Below, in pieces: positions 20,142-27,472 of a DNA stretch of 64,000 nucleotides. Origin of the DNA: Qipengyuania xiapuensis (GTDB taxonomy: Bacteria; Pseudomonadota; Alphaproteobacteria; Sphingomonadales; Sphingomonadaceae); contig NZ_JAIGNL010000001.1 in NCBI RefSeq assembly GCF_019711395.1, positions 992,001-1,056,000 of the forward strand, in the 5' to 3' direction. Each line of letters starts with the position of its first letter. Position 1 is the stretch's first letter. The position numbers were made by a program, and so were the translations under genes. The notes under the pieces are model-generated. The model was not told the DNA's origin. It worked only from the letters and a program-made list of their open reading frames with translations, and did not search any database.

Positions 20142-20669
20142 CTAGTGCTCCGGCCCCAGCTCGGGATCGAGATCGCGCGGGCGGGCGAAATGGACGAGCT
20201 TTCCGCAGCCTTCGGCCAGGTCTTCCCAGTCGTCGATATCGAGTTCGAATACCGCGAAGGCCGCGGTGGGGAACTTGACCTTGGCCTCGTCGAACAGGTC
20301 GTTCTCGTTCTTCGGTGCGACCAGTTCGAAAACTATGTCGCCGAAGCCGGGGTTGTGCCCGGCCAGCAGAAGTGCGTCGGCATTGCCGCCGTCCTCGCGG
20401 ATGACATCGAAGATCGTGTCGGTGCTGGCCAAGTAGAGCCGGCGGTCCCATTCGGGTTCGAGGTTGAGCGCGGCCTCTTCGAGGGTGATCCTCACCCGCT
20501 CAGCCGGGCTGGCCACGAGCTTGTCCCACTTCACCCCGTGATCGCGGATATGCTTGCCGATCAGCCCCGCGCCCTTGCGGCCGCGCGCATTGAGGCCCCG
20601 GTCGAAATCGCGCTTGTCGCTCTGCCCCCAGTCGGACTTGGCGTGGCGCAACAATCCCAGGACCTTCAC
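20142..20669 (-). CDS. SixA-like histidine phosphatase
   Basis: A 175-residue member of the histidine phosphatase (phosphoglycerate-mutase-like) superfamily, close to SixA. RHAKSDW near residue 8 carries the phospho-accepting His; SPAERVRITLEEA holds the conserved Arg and LLAGHNPGF the second catalytic His. SixA removes phosphate from histidine phosphotransfer proteins; a small-molecule phosphatase role is equally possible. The start is GTG at 20669, overlapping the TGA of the helicase gene (GTGA), so it is coupled to that SOS-type gene. Confidence 0.85.
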   Translation of the reverse strand: MKVLGLLRHAKSDWGQSDKRDFDRGLNARGRKGAGLIGKHIRDHGVKWDKLVASPAERVRITLEEAALNLEPEWDRRLYLASTDTIFDVIREDGGNADALLLAGHNPGFGDIVFELVAPKNENDLFDEAKVKFPTAAFAVFELDIDDWEDLAEGCGKLVHFARPRDLDPELGPEH

Positions 20670-23410
20670 GATTCTCCGCTCTCCACCTGTTCGGGTTCGG
20701 TTGTCTCTCCAACACCCTTAGCGACCCGCTGTAAAGCCTCGTCGAGCGTCAGGCGTATGACAGGCGTGCCTTCGGGGAAGGCCGAGAGCAGCCGGCTGGG
20801 GAAGGCGGGCGAGAGGACCACGAAATGGCCCGAATCCTCGCGGCTGCGGATGAGGCGGCCGAATGCCTGCGCCAGCCGTGCACGGATGATCCTGTCGTCA
20901 TAGCGCTGCGCGCCGCCCGCTTCCTCGGCCGCGGCGGCGCGGCGCGCGCGGTGGAGTATGGTCGGGCGCGGCCAGGGTACGCTTTCCATGACCACGCAGC
21001 GCAAAGATCGGCCCGGCACGTCCACACCGTCGCGCAGGGCATCGGTGCCGAGCAGGCTGGCGCGTGCATCGTCGCGGAAGATGTCGGTGAGCGTGCCGGT
21101 GTCGATCGGGTCGACGTGCTGCGCATAGAGCGGGAGGCCTGCACGCGCGAGGCGGTCGGCGATACGCCCATAGACCGCGCGCATCCGCCGGATCGCGGTG
21201 AACAGGCCAAGCACGCCGCCCTTGCTCGCCTCGATCAGTCGGGCATAGGCTCCTGCGAGGGCAGGGATATCGCCGCGCTTGATGTCGGTAACGATCAACA
21301 CCTCGGCGCGGCCTGCATAGTCGAAGGGGCTGTCAGCTTGCGCGGTCTTGGGAAGCAGTTCGAGATGCGGCGCGCCGCTCTTGGCGATGGCATGCTCCCA
21401 GTCGGGCCCGCTCTCGTCGCGGTCGGTCAGCGTGGCGCTGGTCAGCATCACGCCGTGCGCGGGTTCGAGCACGACCTGCGCGAAAGGCTTCATCGGGTCG
21501 AGCCAGTGGCGATAGAGTCCGACGTCGAACTCGCGCGCATCGTTGCGATCGACCGCCAGCCAGTCGACGAATTCGGGATCGGCAGGCCCGCCAAGCCGCG
21601 AGAGCAGCGCTTCCCATGCCGCGATCAAATCGATGCGCCAGGCGAGCGAATGCCGCGCGCCCTCGATCCGTGCACGGCCCTGTCCGTCGAGCCAGTCGGG
21701 CGTATCCTCGAGCACGGCCTCCAGCCGTCCCGCCAGTTTCAGCAGCGGCGTGCGGATCTGCGCGAGGGCCTGTGCGGCACTTCCCGCAGCCTCGACCAGT
21801 TCACCCGGAAGCTGCGAGGTCTCGGTCTCTATGCCGTAGCCCGCCTCCTGCCCGCTTTCATCGCGCGCATAGGTGACGGCGCGGACCTGCCCGAGTAGTG
21901 CTTCGAGCGGACCCGAGGGCGCGCCTTCGGCTAACCGACCGAGCCAGCCGTCGGAGGGCAGCGCCTGCGCCGCCTCGACTGCTTCCTCGACCGCATCGCC
22001 GCCCGCCTCGTCATAGCTGGCGACATCGGCAAGGCGTGCGGCGAGGCCGCGCCGCCTCCCGCGCGAATTGCGTTCGGGACCGATGATCCAGCGGCGAAGC
22101 TCGATCGCTTCCTGTCCGGTCAGGGCGGCGGAAAAAGTGCTGTCGGCAGCATCGAAGACGTGATGGCCCTCATCGAATACGATGCGCGTCGGACGGCTTG
22201 CAAGGTCGCGCCCGCGTGCGGCGTTGACCATCACCAGCGCGTGGTTGGCGATCACGAGATCGGCCTGCGCCGCGTTCCTCGCACTGCGCTCTATGAAGCA
22301 CTTCCGGTAATGCGGGCAGCCCGCATAAACGCATTCGCCACGCTGGTCGGTCAGAGCCGCGATGCCGCGCTTCCTGAACAGCGTGCCGAGCCAGCCGGGC
22401 AGGTCCCCGCCGATCATGTCGCCGTCCTGCGTATAGGCAGCCCAGCGCGCCACCAGATGCGCGAGGATCGCAGGCCGTCCGGCAAATCCGCCCTGCAGCG
22501 CGTCTTCGAGATTGAGCAGGCAGAGATAGTTCTCGCGCCCCTTGCGAACCACGACCGGCGGCGATCCGTCGGGCCGCGCAGGTGGCCATGCGCGGGTGCT
22601 CTCCTGCCGCAACTGCCGCTGGAGGTTCTTGGTATAGGTGCTGACCCAGACCGTCCCGCCCGACTGTTTCGCCCAGAGAGAGGCGGGGGCGAGATAGCCA
22701 AGCGTCTTGCCGATCCCCGTGCCCGCCTGCGCCAGCAGGACATGCGGACGCTTCTCGCGGTCGCGGGGTGAGAAGACATGACCCGCACCGCGCGCATACA
22801 TGCGCTGCCCCTCGCGCTTTTCCGCCCCTTCGCCGGTCAGTCTCTCGAGATGTGCCTCGATCTCGGGCTCGTCGATCAGGACCTGCGCGGGCTGCGGGCG
22901 TTCGGGTGTCTCCTCCCATTCGGGCAGGCGCGTGAAGAGCCACTTCTCGGCTTTTTCGGGTTTGCGGACATGGGGGGCGAGCACGTTCGCCCAGGGCCAG
23001 CGCAGCCGCGCGAGCGATTGCAGCGTCGACCACGCGCCCTCGCGCTCGGCCCAATCGTCGCTTTCGCAGGTCGCCACCAGCGCGCCGGCCGCCTGCTGCA
23101 GCAGCAACGGCACGCCCGCATCGTCCTCCGGCTCCTCGAGATCGAGCGCATGCGCGAGCCCCTTGGGCGTCGGCACGCAGAACTTCGCCGGATGGACGAA
23201 GGCGAATAGCTCGAGCAGGTCGAGGCCGGAAAGGTCGGGATAGCCCAGCCGGTTTGCGACCAACGGCGCGTTCATCATCAGAAGCGGCGTATCGGCCGCC
23301 GCCATGACAGCCTCGCCTTTCGAACACCCCCGAGTAGCGCCGTTCGCATCGCGCAGCCAGGTGCCCGCGTGGCTTGCATGGAGGGAGGGAAGGGGGAGAG
23401 GCTGGCTCAC
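20666..23410 (-). CDS. DinG/YoaA-family ATP-dependent DNA helicase
   Basis: A 914-residue superfamily 2 iron-sulfur helicase. A lineage-specific N-terminal domain (residues 1-190) precedes Walker A QAGTGIGKTLGYLAP; the four cysteines of a [4Fe-4S] cluster occur in the region ALQGGF to YRKCFIER (with GECVYAGCPHYRKC), the DEAH-type box is FDEGHHVFD, and the C-terminal motifs LTSATLTDRD, GTDALRDGVDVPG and QAFGRLIRS follow. DinG-type helicases unwind R-loops, D-loops and G-quadruplexes during repair. The start is GTG at 23410; ATG at 23305 with GAGG upstream is an alternative but would remove sequence that looks conserved. A LexA box lies 13 bases upstream. Confidence 0.9.
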   Translation of the reverse strand: MSQPLPLPSLHASHAGTWLRDANGATRGCSKGEAVMAAADTPLLMMNAPLVANRLGYPDLSGLDLLELFAFVHPAKFCVPTPKGLAHALDLEEPEDDAGVPLLLQQAAGALVATCESDDWAEREGAWSTLQSLARLRWPWANVLAPHVRKPEKAEKWLFTRLPEWEETPERPQPAQVLIDEPEIEAHLERLTGEGAEKREGQRMYARGAGHVFSPRDREKRPHVLLAQAGTGIGKTLGYLAPASLWAKQSGGTVWVSTYTKNLQRQLRQESTRAWPPARPDGSPPVVVRKGRENYLCLLNLEDALQGGFAGRPAILAHLVARWAAYTQDGDMIGGDLPGWLGTLFRKRGIAALTDQRGECVYAGCPHYRKCFIERSARNAAQADLVIANHALVMVNAARGRDLASRPTRIVFDEGHHVFDAADSTFSAALTGQEAIELRRWIIGPERNSRGRRRGLAARLADVASYDEAGGDAVEEAVEAAQALPSDGWLGRLAEGAPSGPLEALLGQVRAVTYARDESGQEAGYGIETETSQLPGELVEAAGSAAQALAQIRTPLLKLAGRLEAVLEDTPDWLDGQGRARIEGARHSLAWRIDLIAAWEALLSRLGGPADPEFVDWLAVDRNDAREFDVGLYRHWLDPMKPFAQVVLEPAHGVMLTSATLTDRDESGPDWEHAIAKSGAPHLELLPKTAQADSPFDYAGRAEVLIVTDIKRGDIPALAGAYARLIEASKGGVLGLFTAIRRMRAVYGRIADRLARAGLPLYAQHVDPIDTGTLTDIFRDDARASLLGTDALRDGVDVPGRSLRCVVMESVPWPRPTILHRARRAAAAEEAGGAQRYDDRIIRARLAQAFGRLIRSREDSGHFVVLSPAFPSRLLSAFPEGTPVIRLTLDEALQRVAKGVGETTEPEQVESGES

Positions 23411-23422
23411 CCTGCGGCGTTA

Positions 23423-23437
23423 GAACACAAACGGAAC
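23423..23437 (-). promoter_or_regulatory. LexA (SOS) box upstream of the DinG-type helicase
   Basis: Read on the minus strand this is GTTC-CGTTTGT-GTTC, an exact match to the GTTC-N7-GTTC operator of alphaproteobacterial LexA. It ends 13 bases before the GTG start at 23410, where it would cover the promoter. The match is seen directly; regulation by LexA is inferred from the known operator of the class. Confidence 0.75.
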
Positions 23438-23632
23438 GCGGGGCAAGCGGGGAAGGCCGGTTTTCCTCGCGGGGATAGCGGCTTTTGGGAGCGATGGGAC
23501 TAAGCGGTTATCTCCGAATGTGGTGGGGAGCGGAGGTTGAGGCTCCTGCCCAAAAGGACAGCTCCTAAACAAACATTGTAGCATCTTTCATTGACCTGCT
23601 AACAAATTATCGGTCGCACAGATGGAGCAAGC

Positions 23633-25555
23633 GTGGCCGATATTTTCATTTCTTATGCACGAGCAGATCGCGCAAAGATCGAAAGGCTTGCACGAACTCT
23701 CGCGGCCAGCGAGTATGATGTTTGGTGGGATCGCGACATCACTGGCGGGTCCGAATTCAGCGCAGTCATTGAACGCGAACTCATTGCTGCCAAGACCGTC
23801 GTGGTTGCCTGGTCTGAAAATTCGCTCGGATCTCATTGGGTTCGTGACGAGGCTGAATTTGCCAGAACTCAAGGGAAGCTGTTGCCGATCTCGCTGGATG
23901 GCGTCCTTCCCCCTCTTGGTTTCCGGCAGATCCACGCCTTGAGCTTCGAAGAGTGGAATGGTGACTGCTCGCACTCTTCCTTTCACGAGCTGTTGGCTTC
24001 GCTCGGCAAAACCCCCTCTCAAGGCATTTCGTCGCGGTCCGAAGAGTTAAGCGCAAGAGCGCTTGGTGGCAGTGCTTCGATCGCAGTGCTTCCCTTCACC
24101 AACATGTCATCAGACCCTGAGCAGGAGTACTTTTCCGACGGGATTGCGGAAGACATTCTCAACGCCTTGTCCAGCTCGACTGACTTGCTCGTCGCTGGCA
24201 GGACCTCCTGCTTTGCGTTCAAAGGCAAGAATGCCAACGTGCAAGACATTGGTGCGCAGCTAAATGTAGATCATGTTCTCGATGGCTCGGTCAGAAAACA
24301 GGGCGATCGTGTCCGCATTACCGCGCAGCTCATTCGGGCCAGTGACGGGTTTCAATTGTGGTCGGAGCGATATGATGGAACGCTCGAAGACGTCTTTGAT
24401 CTGCAAGACCGAATTTCCGGGTCGATCGTCGAACAATTGCAGGCAGTCTTGACGAGCACGCCAGATGGACGTGTGGCTGAGCAGCTGACCGACAATCCGG
24501 TAGCCTATGATCTATTCTTGCGTGCTCGGGCATTGGTCAACAAGGTCTGGGGTGCTGACACGCTCACCCGCGCCGTGACGATTTTGGAGCAAACTGTCGA
24601 GTTGGATCCGGAGTTTGTGAGCGCGTGGGAGTTGTTGGCACGCGCGCATTTCCTCGTCCCGCAGTTCATTTCAAATAGTGACGAGAAACTGAATTACGCT
24701 GCAAGCGAGAAGGCCGCTCGCCGAGCGCTTGACTTGGATCCCAGCTCCGATCTCGCACAGTACCTCGTGCAAGCCGCGAGTTGGGACGGGATGGACATAG
24801 GTCAATTTCTTGAACGAATAGCGCGCCCCGTCGCCCGAGCGACCGCCGACGAGTTGGTCTTCGTGGGTGGACTTACGCAGCTCGTCCTGGGCCGAGTATC
24901 AGCGGCATTGCCAAAGTTTCGGGACGCATTAAATCGCGATCCCTTGTCCGGACGCATGGCCTATAATCTTGCAGAATGTCATCTTGAACTATCGATGTTC
25001 GAGCGCGCCGAAGAATTGTTCAATCAGTCGATCGAGAATGGCTTTAGCGCCGGTTTCTTCGGATTGGCCAAAATTAGAATGATGAAAGGGAGACCGGCCG
25101 AAGCACTTGATGTGATGATGTCTGCCTACGAAGCGATAGGGGAAGGCATTTATCCTCACATGCGCTCGCGAGAACAGTGGGAGTTGGTAGGACGCGCTGC
25201 TTATGCGGGTGATCAGGAAGCTCAAGCAAAGGTGGAAGCATCGATCATCGCGATGGATGCGGAGGGTTCGCAGCCTGTAAACTATTTGGTTTTGACGGTG
25301 CTCATTTGCGAGCAAAGCGCCGAGACTTTTTTTCGTCTCTACAAGAAGAAGAGTTCGCCTGCGATGCACTTTTGCATTGCTCATTCCTTCTGGCAGCCGT
25401 CAGATCGCGCCCACGGCTTTCGTCAGCACCCTGGATTCAAGCGATTTGCCGAGGAAATCGGTCTTGTGGATGCTTGGCAAAAATTTGGATGGCCCGATCT
25501 CGCGAGACCAAACCCCGGCACCGATGGTTCTAATGGAGCCTGGACGATCGATTGA
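23633..25555 (+). CDS. TIR domain - TolB/FlgO-like domain - TPR protein
   Basis: A 640-residue protein in three parts. Residues 1-110 are a TIR domain: DIFISYARADR at the first strand, YDVWWDRDITGGSEF, VVVAWSENSLGSHW and a Glu at 73 four residues after Trp69, the place of the catalytic Glu of NAD-cleaving TIR domains. Residues about 148-270 match the TolB-N/FlgO-like module often attached to class III adenylate cyclases (SIAVLPFTNMSSDPEQEYFS, LLVAGRTSCFAFKG, LDGSVRKQGDRVRITAQL, LWSERYDGTLEDVFDLQD). The rest is TPR-like. No cyclase domain, DNA-binding domain or membrane span is present. Start is GTG at 23633. Base composition is clearly lower in GC than its neighbours, pointing to transfer. 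It could be signalling or anti-phage; no partner gene is adjacent. Confidence 0.85.
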   Translation: MADIFISYARADRAKIERLARTLAASEYDVWWDRDITGGSEFSAVIERELIAAKTVVVAWSENSLGSHWVRDEAEFARTQGKLLPISLDGVLPPLGFRQIHALSFEEWNGDCSHSSFHELLASLGKTPSQGISSRSEELSARALGGSASIAVLPFTNMSSDPEQEYFSDGIAEDILNALSSSTDLLVAGRTSCFAFKGKNANVQDIGAQLNVDHVLDGSVRKQGDRVRITAQLIRASDGFQLWSERYDGTLEDVFDLQDRISGSIVEQLQAVLTSTPDGRVAEQLTDNPVAYDLFLRARALVNKVWGADTLTRAVTILEQTVELDPEFVSAWELLARAHFLVPQFISNSDEKLNYAASEKAARRALDLDPSSDLAQYLVQAASWDGMDIGQFLERIARPVARATADELVFVGGLTQLVLGRVSAALPKFRDALNRDPLSGRMAYNLAECHLELSMFERAEELFNQSIENGFSAGFFGLAKIRMMKGRPAEALDVMMSAYEAIGEGIYPHMRSREQWELVGRAAYAGDQEAQAKVEASIIAMDAEGSQPVNYLVLTVLICEQSAETFFRLYKKKSSPAMHFCIAHSFWQPSDRAHGFRQHPGFKRFAEEIGLVDAWQKFGWPDLARPNPGTDGSNGAWTID

Positions 25556-25742
25556 TATATGGGCGTGCAAACTATCGCCAATCGGGTCGTTAGCCGAATG
25601 ACCGCTTCTCGCAGACGCTTCCAGTCGCTGTCCTACTCCTCGCTCTCACGATAGAGCGTGAGGCATGCCGCAAGCGCTCTCGCCTCTTTCCCTTCTTTAC
25701 GTTCACCATTTGCCGGGCAGCGTGAACTTTTGCCTTAGGACC

Positions 25743-25760
25743 GTGTTCCATGTGTTCCAT
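25743..25760. repeat. Short tandem repeat GTGTTCCAT x2 ahead of lysK
   Basis: Two exact head-to-tail copies of GTGTTCCAT lie in the 291-base gap between the TIR gene and lysK. Apart from this and a weak CTCACG/CGTGAG dyad near 25644-25663, I see no gene, tRNA or att-like structure in the gap; it probably holds the lysK promoter and the right edge of the low-GC segment. Confidence 0.4.
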
Positions 25761-25846
25761 CCTGTGAGGTTCGCCGAGCGCCTCTCCAACATGCGTCCAG
25801 CACTTCGCACTTGCGAAAGCGTGGGCGAGCGGCAAAGGGAATTGCC

Positions 25847-27472
25847 ATGAGCATGAACGATCTGATCACCGCCGCACGTGTGTCCAAGGCCTGGCCCTTC
25901 CAGGAGGCGCAGCGGCTGCTCAAACGCTATCCCGATGGTGCTAAGCCTGATGGCAGCCCGGTGCTGTTCGAAACGGGCTACGGTCCGAGCGGCCTGCCGC
26001 ATATCGGCACCTTCCAGGAAGTGCTGCGCACCACGCTCGTGCGCCGTGCCTATGAGGCCATGATCGGCGCGAAGCCCGAGGACGGCAAGACACGCCTCGT
26101 TGCATTCTCCGACGACATGGACGGCCTGCGCAAGGTGCCCGACAACGTGCCCAACCAGGAACTGCTCGAGGCGAACCTGCACCTCCCGCTCAGCCGCGTG
26201 CCCGACCCGTTCGAGAAGGGCCACGAGAGCTTTGCCGCGCACAACAACGCGCGCTTACGCGAATTCCTCGACCGCTTCGGTTTCGAGTACGAGTTCATCG
26301 CGGCGAACGACATGTACAACTCGGGGCGCTTCGACGATGCGCTGCGCCAGGTCCTGCGCAAGAACCAGGACATCCTCGACATCATGCTGCCGACGCTGCG
26401 CGAGGAGCGCCGACAGACCTATTCGCCGGTGCTGCCGATATCGCCCTCCACGGGCCGGGTGTTGCAGGTGCCGGTCGAGGTCCTCGACGCGGAAGCGGGT
26501 ACGATCCGCTTCACCGATGAAGACGGCACGGTCGTCGAGCAGTCGGCGTTGGGCGGCATGTCCAAGCTGCAGTGGAAGGTCGATTGGGCGATGCGCTGGT
26601 ATGCGCTTGGCGTCGATTACGAGATGTACGGCAAGGACCTGACCGACAGCGGCGTGCAGTCGGGCCGGATCGTCAAGGTGCTCGGTGGTCGCAAGCCGGA
26701 GGGGCTGATCTACGAGATGTTCCTCGACCAGAACGGCGAGAAGATCTCCAAGTCCAAGGGCAACGGCCTCTCGATCGAGGAATGGCTGACCTATGGCAGC
26801 GAAGAGAGCCTCGGCTTCTACATCTTCCCCAATCCCAAGAGCGCCAAGCAGCTGCACGTGGGCGTGATCCCGCGCGCGGTGGACGATTACTGGCAGTTCC
26901 GCGAACGTCTTGCCGAGCAACCGCTCGACAAGCAGCTCGGCAATCCGGTGTGGCACCTCCAGCGTGCGAACGGGGGCTTCGACACCGACGAGGCACCGGG
27001 TGCTGGCGACACCCTCCCGGTCACCTACGGCCTGCTGCTCAATCTCGCGAGCGTGCTCGGTGCGGAGGCGACCGAAGAGAACCTGCGCGAATATCTCCAG
27101 ACCTACATCGGCGACGGCAAGATCACGCCTGAGCTCGAAGTTCTGATCGGCACGGCGGTTGCCTATACGCGCGACTACATCGTGCCGACGCTGTCGAAGC
27201 GTGCGCCGGAGCCCAACGAGGCCGAGGCACTGAAGACGCTCGACGCCTATCTTGCCGGCGCGGCTGCCGACACCAGTGCCGAGGATCTCCAGACCGAGGT
27301 CTACGAGATCGGCAAGCGCGAAGAGTACGGCTTCGAGTCGCTGCGCGACTGGTTCAAGGCGCTCTACCAGACGCTGCTCGGCAGCGATCAGGGGCCGCGC
27401 ATGGGCAGCTTTATTGCGCTCTATGGTATTGAAAATACGCGCAAGCTGATTGCCGATGCGCTGGCGCGATAG
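25847..27472 (+). CDS. lysK: Lysyl-tRNA synthetase, class I
   Basis: A 541-residue class I lysyl-tRNA synthetase, the archaeal-type enzyme that replaces the usual class II LysS in alphaproteobacteria. The HIGH-like motif reads LPHIGTFQEVLRTT and the KMSKS-like motif reads EKISKSKGNG; ETGYGPSG precedes the first, and KVDWAMRWYALGVDYEMYGKD is the core segment before the second (cited in part). The C-terminal alpha-helical cage ends with RMGSFIALYG. The ATG at 25847 is preceded by AAAGGGA; an in-frame start 36 bases upstream lacks a ribosome site. It is monocistronic, between the TIR gene and the LOV kinase. Confidence 0.95.
   Translation: MSMNDLITAARVSKAWPFQEAQRLLKRYPDGAKPDGSPVLFETGYGPSGLPHIGTFQEVLRTTLVRRAYEAMIGAKPEDGKTRLVAFSDDMDGLRKVPDNVPNQELLEANLHLPLSRVPDPFEKGHESFAAHNNARLREFLDRFGFEYEFIAANDMYNSGRFDDALRQVLRKNQDILDIMLPTLREERRQTYSPVLPISPSTGRVLQVPVEVLDAEAGTIRFTDEDGTVVEQSALGGMSKLQWKVDWAMRWYALGVDYEMYGKDLTDSGVQSGRIVKVLGGRKPEGLIYEMFLDQNGEKISKSKGNGLSIEEWLTYGSEESLGFYIFPNPKSAKQLHVGVIPRAVDDYWQFRERLAEQPLDKQLGNPVWHLQRANGGFDTDEAPGAGDTLPVTYGLLLNLASVLGAEATEENLREYLQTYIGDGKITPELEVLIGTAVAYTRDYIVPTLSKRAPEPNEAEALKTLDAYLAGAAADTSAEDLQTEVYEIGKREEYGFESLRDWFKALYQTLLGSDQGPRMGSFIALYGIENTRKLIADALAR

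What the first reader, a model, noticed from the sequence alone, without database searches (positions are those of the whole stretch)
23633..25555. Acquired TIR - TolB/FlgO-like - TPR gene with an intact catalytic Glu
Seen directly: three-part architecture with Trp69 and Glu73 spaced as in NAD-cleaving TIR domains, lower GC than both flanks, a GTG start, and no adjacent partner. Known: TIR domains in bacterial defence cleave NAD or make cyclic ADP-ribose; the TolB-N/FlgO module is usually attached to adenylate cyclases with TPRs. Inference: here the TIR replaces the cyclase as output or input, giving a single-gene sensor in which the TPR part detects a trigger and the TIR acts on NAD. This is the best candidate in the window for a poorly described system.
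Basis: partly seen in the sequence, partly recalled or inferred. Interest (0 to 1): 0.58.

Follow-up and report, generated by a model that had tools for sequence, protein, structure and literature searches.

The report
TIR sensor gene with distant partner
A bacterial gene joins an NAD-cutting TIR domain to a sensor module; it moves alone between related species, and its relatives often sit next to a membrane protein likely to receive the signal, so it is probably one of several interchangeable alarm proteins sharing one effector.

Summary
Window 23633-25555 (+) encodes a 640-aa TIR - TolB-N/FlgO-like - TPR protein; E73, in the NADase catalytic position, is invariant in 50 of 50 aligned relatives. 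It is foreign to its site: a 91%-identical block limited to this gene lies elsewhere in another species, with dS 0.33 against 1.32 for the neighbouring helicase gene; dN/dS is 0.11. 'Single-gene system' is not the best reading. TIR-TolB-TPR relatives repeatedly sit beside a SLOG-SLATT membrane protein: 8 genus genomes in one gene order, a divergent pair in another; in a family sample 18 of 42 SLOG-bearing genomes have a TIR hit within 5 kb (about 0.3 expected). All 20 genus genomes with TIR-TolB-TPR carry it; of the other 40, two do (plus one fragment), next to or one gene from another TIR-TPR gene. The window's genome has one such gene, 216 kb away, and five TIR_2 proteins. Best reading: an orphan TIR sensor whose ADP-ribose-type signal opens a shared SLOG-SLATT effector in trans, as in Thoeris. 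NADase activity, signal, trans coupling and phage defence are inferred. Phylogeny-corrected co-occurrence in the genus is only suggestive (p 0.0625). New variant of a known kind.

The parts
23633..25555 (+). TIR - TolB-N/FlgO-like - TPR gene, 640 aa, GTG start
23642..23965 (+). TIR domain (residues 4-111)
   Evidence: Pfam TIR_2; SARM1 and SPARTA TIR folds
23837..23839 (+). codon of Trp69
   Evidence: invariant in 50 of 50
23849..23851 (+). codon of Glu73, putative catalytic residue
   Evidence: invariant in 50 of 50; falls on the Glu of AbTIR and other solved bacterial TIR domains
24065..24460 (+). TolB-N/FlgO-like domain (residues 145-276)
   Evidence: TolB 4pwz Z 15.0, FlgT 3w1e Z 15.8; lowest dN/dS of the three parts, 0.053
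24497..25267 (+). TPR superhelix (residues 289-545)
   Evidence: Pfam TPR models; model pLDDT over 80 in blocks 291-500, 60-78 in 501-550
23529..25585 (.). block shared at 91% DNA identity with another locus of genome G027: the unit that moved (gene, about 100 bp upstream, 30 bp downstream)
23411..25846 (.). helicase-lysyl-tRNA synthetase spacer, a variable-content site in the genus
   Evidence: 178 to 11,746 bp in the 54 of 60 genomes where the two genes are linked; cargo differs
20666..23410 (-). flanking dinG-like helicase gene (name read from sequence); used for the species tree
25847..27472 (+). flanking class I lysyl-tRNA synthetase gene (name read from sequence)

Best explanation
The gene encodes a probably cytosolic signal-generating TIR protein. 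The TolB-N/FlgO-like plus TPR part senses or is assembled by a trigger; this brings TIR domains together, and they cleave NAD+ through Glu73 to an ADP-ribose-type product. The product is read by the SLOG domain of one SLOG-SLATT membrane protein encoded elsewhere in the genome (G000:C1:797722-799524, 216 kb away), which permeabilises the membrane and stops or kills the cell, most likely as abortive-infection defence. The gene is one of several interchangeable TIR inputs (five TIR_2 proteins in this genome) to one effector, and can travel between species as a single gene because the effector is already there. Shown: architecture, conserved catalytic residues, purifying selection, horizontal transfer, physical association of the family with SLOG-SLATT, presence of that partner in this genome. 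Inferred: NAD cleavage, nature of the signal, trans coupling of this member, membrane effect, phage trigger.
For: E73/W69 invariant in 50 of 50; TIR fold. SLOG-SLATT gene directly downstream of a TIR-TolB-TPR gene on the same strand in 8 genus genomes: 6 read in sequence (L146, L148-L152) and G010, G012 by coordinates; divergent in G049 (L143); three genes on in G016 (L227); divergent and adjacent in Novosphingobium sp. RL4 (L273). Family sample of 199 genomes: SLOG in 42, a TIR hit within 5 kb in 18 of 42, about 0.3 expected if positions were random (in two of the 18, G117 and G196, the open frame of 361-404 aa is too short for TIR-TolB-TPR). Genus: 20 of 20 TIR-TolB-TPR genomes have SLOG, 2 of the other 40 plus a fragment in G024 (Fisher p 5.5e-14, not corrected for phylogeny). 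SLOG also lies beside or one gene from other TIR proteins: TIR-TM-TPR in G002, G035, G056, TIR-FHA in G016, and a TIR gene on a Caballeronia plasmid. SLOG-adjacent members occur on both sides of the deepest split of the TIR-TolB tree (quick tree). The partner's N-domain is homologous to phage proteins, 3 of 5 of which pass the Pfam YpsA SLOG cut-off, and a modelled relative has the YpsA fold, Z 16.0; its membrane part matches SLATT_1 in 17 of 18 members. Precedent: one ThsA served by one or several ThsB TIR proteins (PMC11204291, PMC7272460, passages); TIR beside SLATT in firmicute phages (PMC9503650, passages).
Against: No member of the window's own orthogroup (5 genomes) has SLOG in the stretch read around it. 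The genus co-occurrence is not significant after phylogeny: 5 supported independent pairs, concordant in all or all but one, p 0.0625. 10 of 42 SLOG genomes in the family sample have no listed TIR hit, 11 have it over 10 kb away or on another contig, 3 at 5-10 kb. One TIR paralog and the SLOG gene of this genome flank a cluster of putative isoprenoid and redox enzyme genes, which suggests metabolism rather than defence. No PADLOC model fits over its length. SLATT_1 scores 25.1 bits against a curated cut-off of 41 for this genome's protein. No activity was measured.
Confidence: 0.42

Rival explanations
1. Stand-alone abortive-infection NADase: the TPR part detects a trigger and the TIR depletes NAD+ without any partner.
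For: Intact catalytic residues, no neighbouring partner, the gene moves alone; SARM1 and SPARTA TIR domains, among the closest folds, act by NAD+ depletion (established knowledge).
Against: Family tied to SLOG-SLATT by adjacency and co-occurrence; all 5 genomes with this orthogroup carry SLOG.
Confidence: 0.2
2. A non-defence signalling protein: TIR product and SLOG-SLATT regulate stress, membrane or isoprenoid/lipid metabolism, as CadC-like and cyclase-TolB-TPR relatives regulate physiology.
For: TolB-TPR relatives carry cyclase or DNA-binding heads; CadC fold. In 7 genomes TIR paralogs lie beside or, in G013, near a cluster with a polyprenyl synthase-like gene (read by eye), a saccharopine dehydrogenase-like gene (Pfam) and paired genes without a Pfam match; an NAD_binding_8 oxidoreductase gene of these neighbourhoods is in 16 of the 20 TIR genomes against 1 of 40 (Fisher). 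In G016 TIR-FHA lies beside SLOG with kinase- and phosphatase-like genes (read by eye).
Against: Patchy distribution, horizontal movement of the single gene, several divergent copies per genome, two different copies at one site; the oxidoreductase gene is missing in 4 of the 20 TIR and SLOG genomes.
Confidence: 0.28
3. The TIR is a non-catalytic protein-protein adaptor and the TPR array a scaffold.
For: TIR domains often act as scaffolds (established knowledge); TPR arrays bind proteins.
Against: Trp and Glu of the active site invariant in 50 of 50 while mean column identity is 25%.
Confidence: 0.07
4. A decaying acquired gene without function.
For: Low GC, acquired, patchy.
Against: Intact frame in all 5 orthologs and dN/dS 0.11 to 0.16 in the three ortholog pairs where dS was measurable.
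Confidence: 0.03

Closest known systems
Thoeris type I (ThsB TIR with ThsA SIR2-SLOG)
   Same: TIR protein makes an ADPR-type signal, a SLOG protein reads it; one effector can be served by several divergent TIR proteins (PMC11204291, PMC7272460, passages)
   Different: Here the TIR protein carries TolB-N/FlgO and TPR, the SLOG protein carries SLATT-like membrane helices with no SIR2 match, and this member is 216 kb from the partner
Thoeris with TM-macro ThsA
   Same: Membrane effector gated by an ADPR-type nucleotide (PMC11204291, passages)
   Different: SLOG instead of a macro domain; SLATT-like helices
TIR-SLATT gene pairs of firmicute phages (PMC9503650, passages)
   Same: TIR gene beside a SLATT effector predicted to respond to ADPR derivatives
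   Different: There the text names a 2TM SLATT gene; here SLOG and SLATT are fused and the TIR partner has a sensor module
CadC periplasmic domain, cyclase-TolB-TPR and wHTH-TolB-TPR proteins
   Same: The same TolB-N/FlgO-like plus TPR module
   Different: Output head is TIR; no transmembrane helix between head and module in the window protein
SARM1 and SPARTA TIR domains
   Same: TIR fold, Z 15.5 and 16.4
   Different: Other regulatory domains (ARM/SAM; APAZ/Ago)

Membership tests
TIR-domain NADases | TIR fold | tested here: met
   Pfam TIR_2; SARM1 9mw2 Z 15.5, rmsd 2.3, 119 aligned
TIR-domain NADases | Catalytic glutamate in the W-x-x-x-E position | tested here: met
   E73 in 50 of 50; falls on the Glu of AbTIR and other solved bacterial TIR domains
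TIR-domain NADases | NAD+ cleavage | not testable with these tools
   needs an assay
Thoeris type I | Adjacent thsA and thsB | tested here: not met
   Window gene flanked by other genes; SLOG gene 216 kb away
Thoeris type I | SIR2-SLOG effector | tested here: not met
   Members of the partner family match SLATT_1 and DUF4231 and no SIR2 family
Thoeris type I | ThsB profile over its length | tested here: not met
   PADLOC ThsB at most 18.9 bits over the TIR only; Pfam ThsB_TIR 15.8 against 21.2
Thoeris type III (NCBIfam ThcB4) | NCBIfam NF058526 cut-off | tested here: not met
   29.8 bits against 220
TolB-N/FlgO-TPR sensor proteins (CadC-like) | TolB-N/FlgO-like fold followed by TPR | tested here: met
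   TolB Z 15.0, FlgT Z 15.8; CadC E 1.2e-6
TolB-N/FlgO-TPR sensor proteins (CadC-like) | CadC itself: DNA-binding head and transmembrane helix before the TolB part | tested here: not met
   TIR head; best hydropathy in the linker 0.87
SLATT effectors (partner protein) | SLATT domain above curated cut-off | tested here: inconclusive
   SLATT_1 in 17 of 18 members, best E 3.4e-10, but 25.1 bits against a cut-off of 41 for this genome's protein
SLOG domains (partner protein) | YpsA/DprA-type Rossmannoid fold | tested here: met
   Tested on a viral-contig relative (L240), not on this genome's own protein: YpsA Z 16.0, DprA Z 11.7; 3 of 5 phage relatives pass the Pfam YpsA cut-off
STAND/NLR-type immune receptors | NB-ARC or NACHT ATPase | tested here: not met
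   None among the 15 Pfam families up to E 1 for the window protein

The most novel reading that the evidence does not exclude
A bacterial hub-and-spoke immune network: one SLOG-SLATT membrane effector per genome is driven in trans by a varying set of TIR sensors of several architectures (TIR-TolB-TPR, TIR-TM-TPR, TIR-FHA), and single sensors such as the window gene are exchanged between species like interchangeable receptors.
Probability: 0.35. Interest if true: 0.82.

Novelty: new variant of a known kind. Interest (0 to 1): 0.62.

Why it matters
It would explain why an apparently partnerless TIR sensor persists and spreads: its effector is elsewhere in the genome. It would extend TIR-to-SLOG signalling to a membrane effector with many exchangeable inputs, a bacterial parallel to receptor repertoires, and neighbourhood-based defence finders would miss such sensors (PADLOC gave only TIR-domain matches). 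A candidate partner gene is identified, so the idea can be tested by deleting one gene.

Tried and rejected
Low GC as proof of acquisition: the gene is 0.544 against 0.641, and its 4 orthologs are 7-8 points below their flanks at other sites, but only 28 of 51 TIR genes in the set are below their flanks, so low GC marks this orthogroup and not the family. The transfer claim rests on dS instead.

Terminal repeats at the ends of the moved block: nothing convincing among the short repeats found, so the transfer mechanism is open. Plasmid carriage of the window type: 591 plasmid records match, 0 over 80% of the length; the 40 rows shown are cyclase- or wHTH-type proteins or carry no annotation. 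A viral search with the full family alignment failed for lack of a conserved stretch.

SLOG by sequence alone was weak: 2 of 18 members match YpsA and 2 YAcAr, at best E 0.09-0.14, and the PDB profile search gave nothing believable. It rests on phage relatives and the fold of L240; Foldseek alone gave no match below E 0.001 for that model, whose mean pLDDT is only 62.6 although the N-domain is mostly over 80. TRPM2 rows (Z 7.3) are too weak to use.

Phylogeny-aware co-occurrence in the genus did not reach significance (p 0.0625), so the claim leans on physical adjacency across genera. That count is a lower bound because the listing was cut, and the chance figure assumes random positions in 3-Mb genomes. 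My notebook (entry 5) says 19 within 5 kb by eye; the computed number is 18. Entry 4 says about 13 paralogs with a TM helix; at the threshold used (1.6) it is 11 of 50. The window protein's most hydrophobic 19 residues (1.66, at 408) lie in a TPR helix of the model, its linker reaches 0.87; signal peptides were not tested.

Literature: none of the papers listed by ten searches is, by title and start of abstract, about TIR-TolB-TPR proteins. Some listings were capped (20 of 94, 15 of 33, 15 of 202), and one search returned mostly unrelated papers because of its terms. Subscription papers are not covered. A PDB entry 9m0n, 'Tetratricopeptide repeat protein' of 824 aa with an N-terminal TIR-like match (E 0.01), was not followed up. 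Four papers were seen as passages (PMC7159879, PMC9503650, PMC11204291, PMC7272460); all others as listings.

Full report
WHAT IS THERE. The ORF at 23633-25555 (+) is real: 640 aa from a GTG, TIR_2 at residues 4-111 and TPR matches between 308 and 469. The middle part is only a sub-threshold FlgO match by sequence, but the AlphaFold2 model (mean pLDDT 79.9, alignment A3 of 71 rows) gives three parts, and the aligner matches residues 1-126 to TIR domains (SARM1 9mw2 Z 15.5, SPARTA 8ifl Z 16.4), 145-276 to TolB 4pwz (Z 15.0) and 143-278 to FlgT 3w1e (Z 15.8), and the rest to TPR superhelices. Foldseek finds the CadC periplasmic domain (E 1.2e-6). The linker between TIR and TolB part is not hydrophobic (0.87), unlike that of 11 of the 50 aligned relatives (over 1.6), so the protein is probably cytosolic. 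W69 and E73 are as stated. In alignment A1 (50 TIR-TolB-TPR proteins: genus genomes, four from Croceibacterium salegens, one from Roseomonas rosulenta) both are invariant, with a mean column identity of 25%, and in the printed alignments they fall on W and E of AbTIR and other solved bacterial TIR domains.

THE MODULE. The TolB-N/FlgO-TPR part is a common sensor or assembly module with swapped heads: of 52 relatives without TIR that I scanned (of 116), 31 have a class III cyclase, 12 a Trans_reg_C head and 3 a GerE head. Of 51 TIR-bearing ORFs found, 50 were aligned (one was a cut copy of another) and all 50 match TIR_2.

ACQUIRED. The window's genome (two contigs, 2.71 Mb, unnamed) belongs to a genus with 60 held genomes. 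The orthologs are G027 (93% aa), G056, G059 and G003 (56-57%). They sit at three different sites: the helicase-lysyl-tRNA synthetase spacer here, beside a folE-like gene in G027, and beside an accC-like gene in the other three (gene names read by eye). Between G000 and G027 only 23529-25585 is shared at 91% DNA identity, i.e. the gene with about 100 bp upstream and 30 bp downstream; dS is 0.325 for the gene and 1.318 for the helicase gene, and dN/dS is 0.112. On a helicase-gene tree of 58 genomes (two of the 60 left out) the orthogroup needs 5 changes. So the single gene was transferred recently relative to the species split and is under selection. The spacer itself is variable: in the 54 genomes where the two genes are linked it is 178-11,746 bp (median 2,050; 7 at most 500 bp, 4 over 5 kb), with differing cargo. 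In G037 a different TIR-TolB-TPR gene, from another subclade, sits beside the same synthetase gene in the opposite orientation; likewise the G027 ortholog and a distant relative in G004 share one site.

A PARTNER. The neighbours of the relatives changed the picture. In 6 genomes (G003, G011, G014, G019, G027, G030) a gene for a 600-aa protein follows the TIR gene directly on the same strand; by coordinates the same holds in G010 and G012. In G049 a 678-aa relative is divergent from the TIR gene. These proteins have an N-terminal domain with motifs such as GVTGHR and WDG...GGT, followed by four hydrophobic stretches in two of the three measured, three in the other. The N-domain is homologous to phage proteins of about 150-200 aa, of which 3 of 5 scanned pass Pfam's YpsA SLOG cut-off (best 1.4e-15, L241), and the model of the full-length relative in viral contig L240 has the YpsA fold (Z 16.0, rmsd 2.4, 159 aligned). 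The membrane part matches NCBIfam SLATT_1 in 17 of 18 members, though under the curated cut-off for this genome's protein. I call it SLOG-SLATT.

CO-OCCURRENCE. In the genus, SLOG-SLATT is in 23 of 60 genomes, one (G024) a fragment. All 20 genomes with TIR-TolB-TPR (read by me) have it; of the other 40 only G002 and G035 do, apart from that fragment (Fisher p 5.5e-14). In G002 it abuts, and in G035 it lies one gene from, a different TIR protein, TIR-TM-TPR (domains of the G056 relative, TM read by eye). With phylogeny the genus alone gives 5 supported independent pairs that differ in TIR, SLOG concordant in 4.9 on average and never opposed, p 0.0625; of 7 pairs that differ in SLOG, TIR is concordant in 5 and does not differ in 2. 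This is suggestive only. In a family sample of 199 genomes SLOG-SLATT is in 42 (31 of 96 genera); 18 of these 42 have a TIR hit within 5 kb (about 0.3 expected if random; in G117 and G196 the frame is too short for TIR-TolB-TPR), 3 at 5-10 kb, 11 farther or on another contig, 10 none listed. SLOG also lies beside TIR-FHA in G016, beside TIR-TolB-TPR on a Novosphingobium plasmid and beside a TIR gene on a Caballeronia plasmid, a betaproteobacterium. SLOG-adjacent members occur on both sides of the deepest split of the TIR-TolB tree, a quick tree with long-branch warnings.

THIS GENOME. It has five TIR_2 proteins: four TIR-TolB-TPR and one relative of the TIR-TM-TPR protein (L337), and one SLOG-SLATT gene at C1:797722-799524, about 8 kb from one TIR-TolB-TPR paralog and 216 kb from the window gene. 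Judged by open-frame length and match range the TIR-TM-TPR type is in 18 of the 20 TIR-TolB-TPR genomes; I checked 10 of these 18 by sequence and all 10 hold a relative of that protein.

MECHANISM. The most economical reading is a Thoeris-like scheme: TIR proteins make an ADP-ribose-type signal and the SLOG domain of one membrane effector reads it. Thoeris has one ThsA and one or several ThsB (PMC11204291, PMC7272460; passages), and a TIR-SLATT neighbourhood is described in firmicute phages, with SLATT predicted as an ADPr-derivative-regulated membrane effector (PMC9503650; passages). The window gene would be an orphan sensor working in trans, which explains how it can travel alone. What is shown is anatomy, selection, transfer and association; NAD cleavage, the product, the trans coupling and the phage trigger are inferred.

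AGAINST. No member of the window's own orthogroup is next to SLOG. A cluster with a polyprenyl synthase-like gene (read by eye), a saccharopine dehydrogenase-like gene and paired genes without Pfam match lies beside TIR paralogs in 6 genomes and near one in G013; a NAD_binding_8 oxidoreductase gene of these neighbourhoods is in 17 of 60 genomes, 16 of the 20 with TIR and 1 of the other 40 (Fisher 5.0e-10). So a metabolic or stress role remains open (rival, 0.28). It is less regular than SLOG: 4 of the 20 lack it.

MEMBERSHIP AND NOVELTY. It is not Thoeris by the tests: no adjacent thsA, no SIR2 match in the partner, ThsB and ThcB4 models far under their cut-offs or limited to the TIR. It works like the TIR arm of Thoeris. 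No paper listed by my ten searches is about this architecture; several listings were capped and subscription journals are not covered. I rate it a new variant of a known kind. The nearest named organism among the hits is Croceibacterium salegens (L037); that the window is from the Erythrobacteraceae (Sphingomonadales) is my inference.

Noticed in passing
window 23411-25846 and 53 other genomes of the genus: The helicase-lysyl-tRNA synthetase spacer is a variable-content site, 178 to 11,746 bp, with different cargo from genome to genome.
   Followed up: partly
L037:707-7881: Four TIR-TolB-TPR genes in tandem in Croceibacterium salegens.
   Followed up: no
G136 contig C1: A 2.2-Mb genome with 18 TIR or TolB matches, several in tight clusters, and one SLOG-SLATT gene.
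   Followed up: no
L220, L230-L233, L121, L133, L135, L137, L138, L141, L142: A conserved cluster (polyprenyl synthase-like by eye, saccharopine dehydrogenase-like by Pfam, paired genes without Pfam match, a NAD_binding_8 oxidoreductase) beside SLOG-SLATT or TIR-TolB-TPR genes; the oxidoreductase is in 17 of 60 genus genomes, 16 of them with TIR-TolB-TPR.
   Followed up: partly
L235:6605-10072, L239:5979-9572: Proteins of 1155-1197 aa with an N-terminal TIR followed by what reads like a cyclase domain, an AAA ATPase and TPRs, near relatives of the same oxidoreductase (domains read by eye).
   Followed up: no
L226:10739-16707: SLOG-SLATT beside a TIR-FHA protein, with a protein kinase-like and a phosphatase-like gene next to it (read by eye; TIR and FHA by Pfam).
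   Followed up: no
L241-L271: Viral contigs encode stand-alone relatives of the SLOG domain, about 150-200 aa (3 of 5 scanned pass the Pfam YpsA cut-off), possible sponges or readers of ADPR-type signals.
   Followed up: partly
L240:7923-10049: A full-length SLOG-SLATT gene on a viral contig beside what read like phage or gene-transfer-agent tail genes.
   Followed up: partly
L337:5198-7408 (G000:C1:301197-303407) and 9 further loci L338-L346: A TIR-TM-TPR-type gene in genomes that also carry SLOG-SLATT, in most of the ten loci beside a gene of 160-202 aa; a guaA-like gene (read by eye) lies next in L337.
   Followed up: partly
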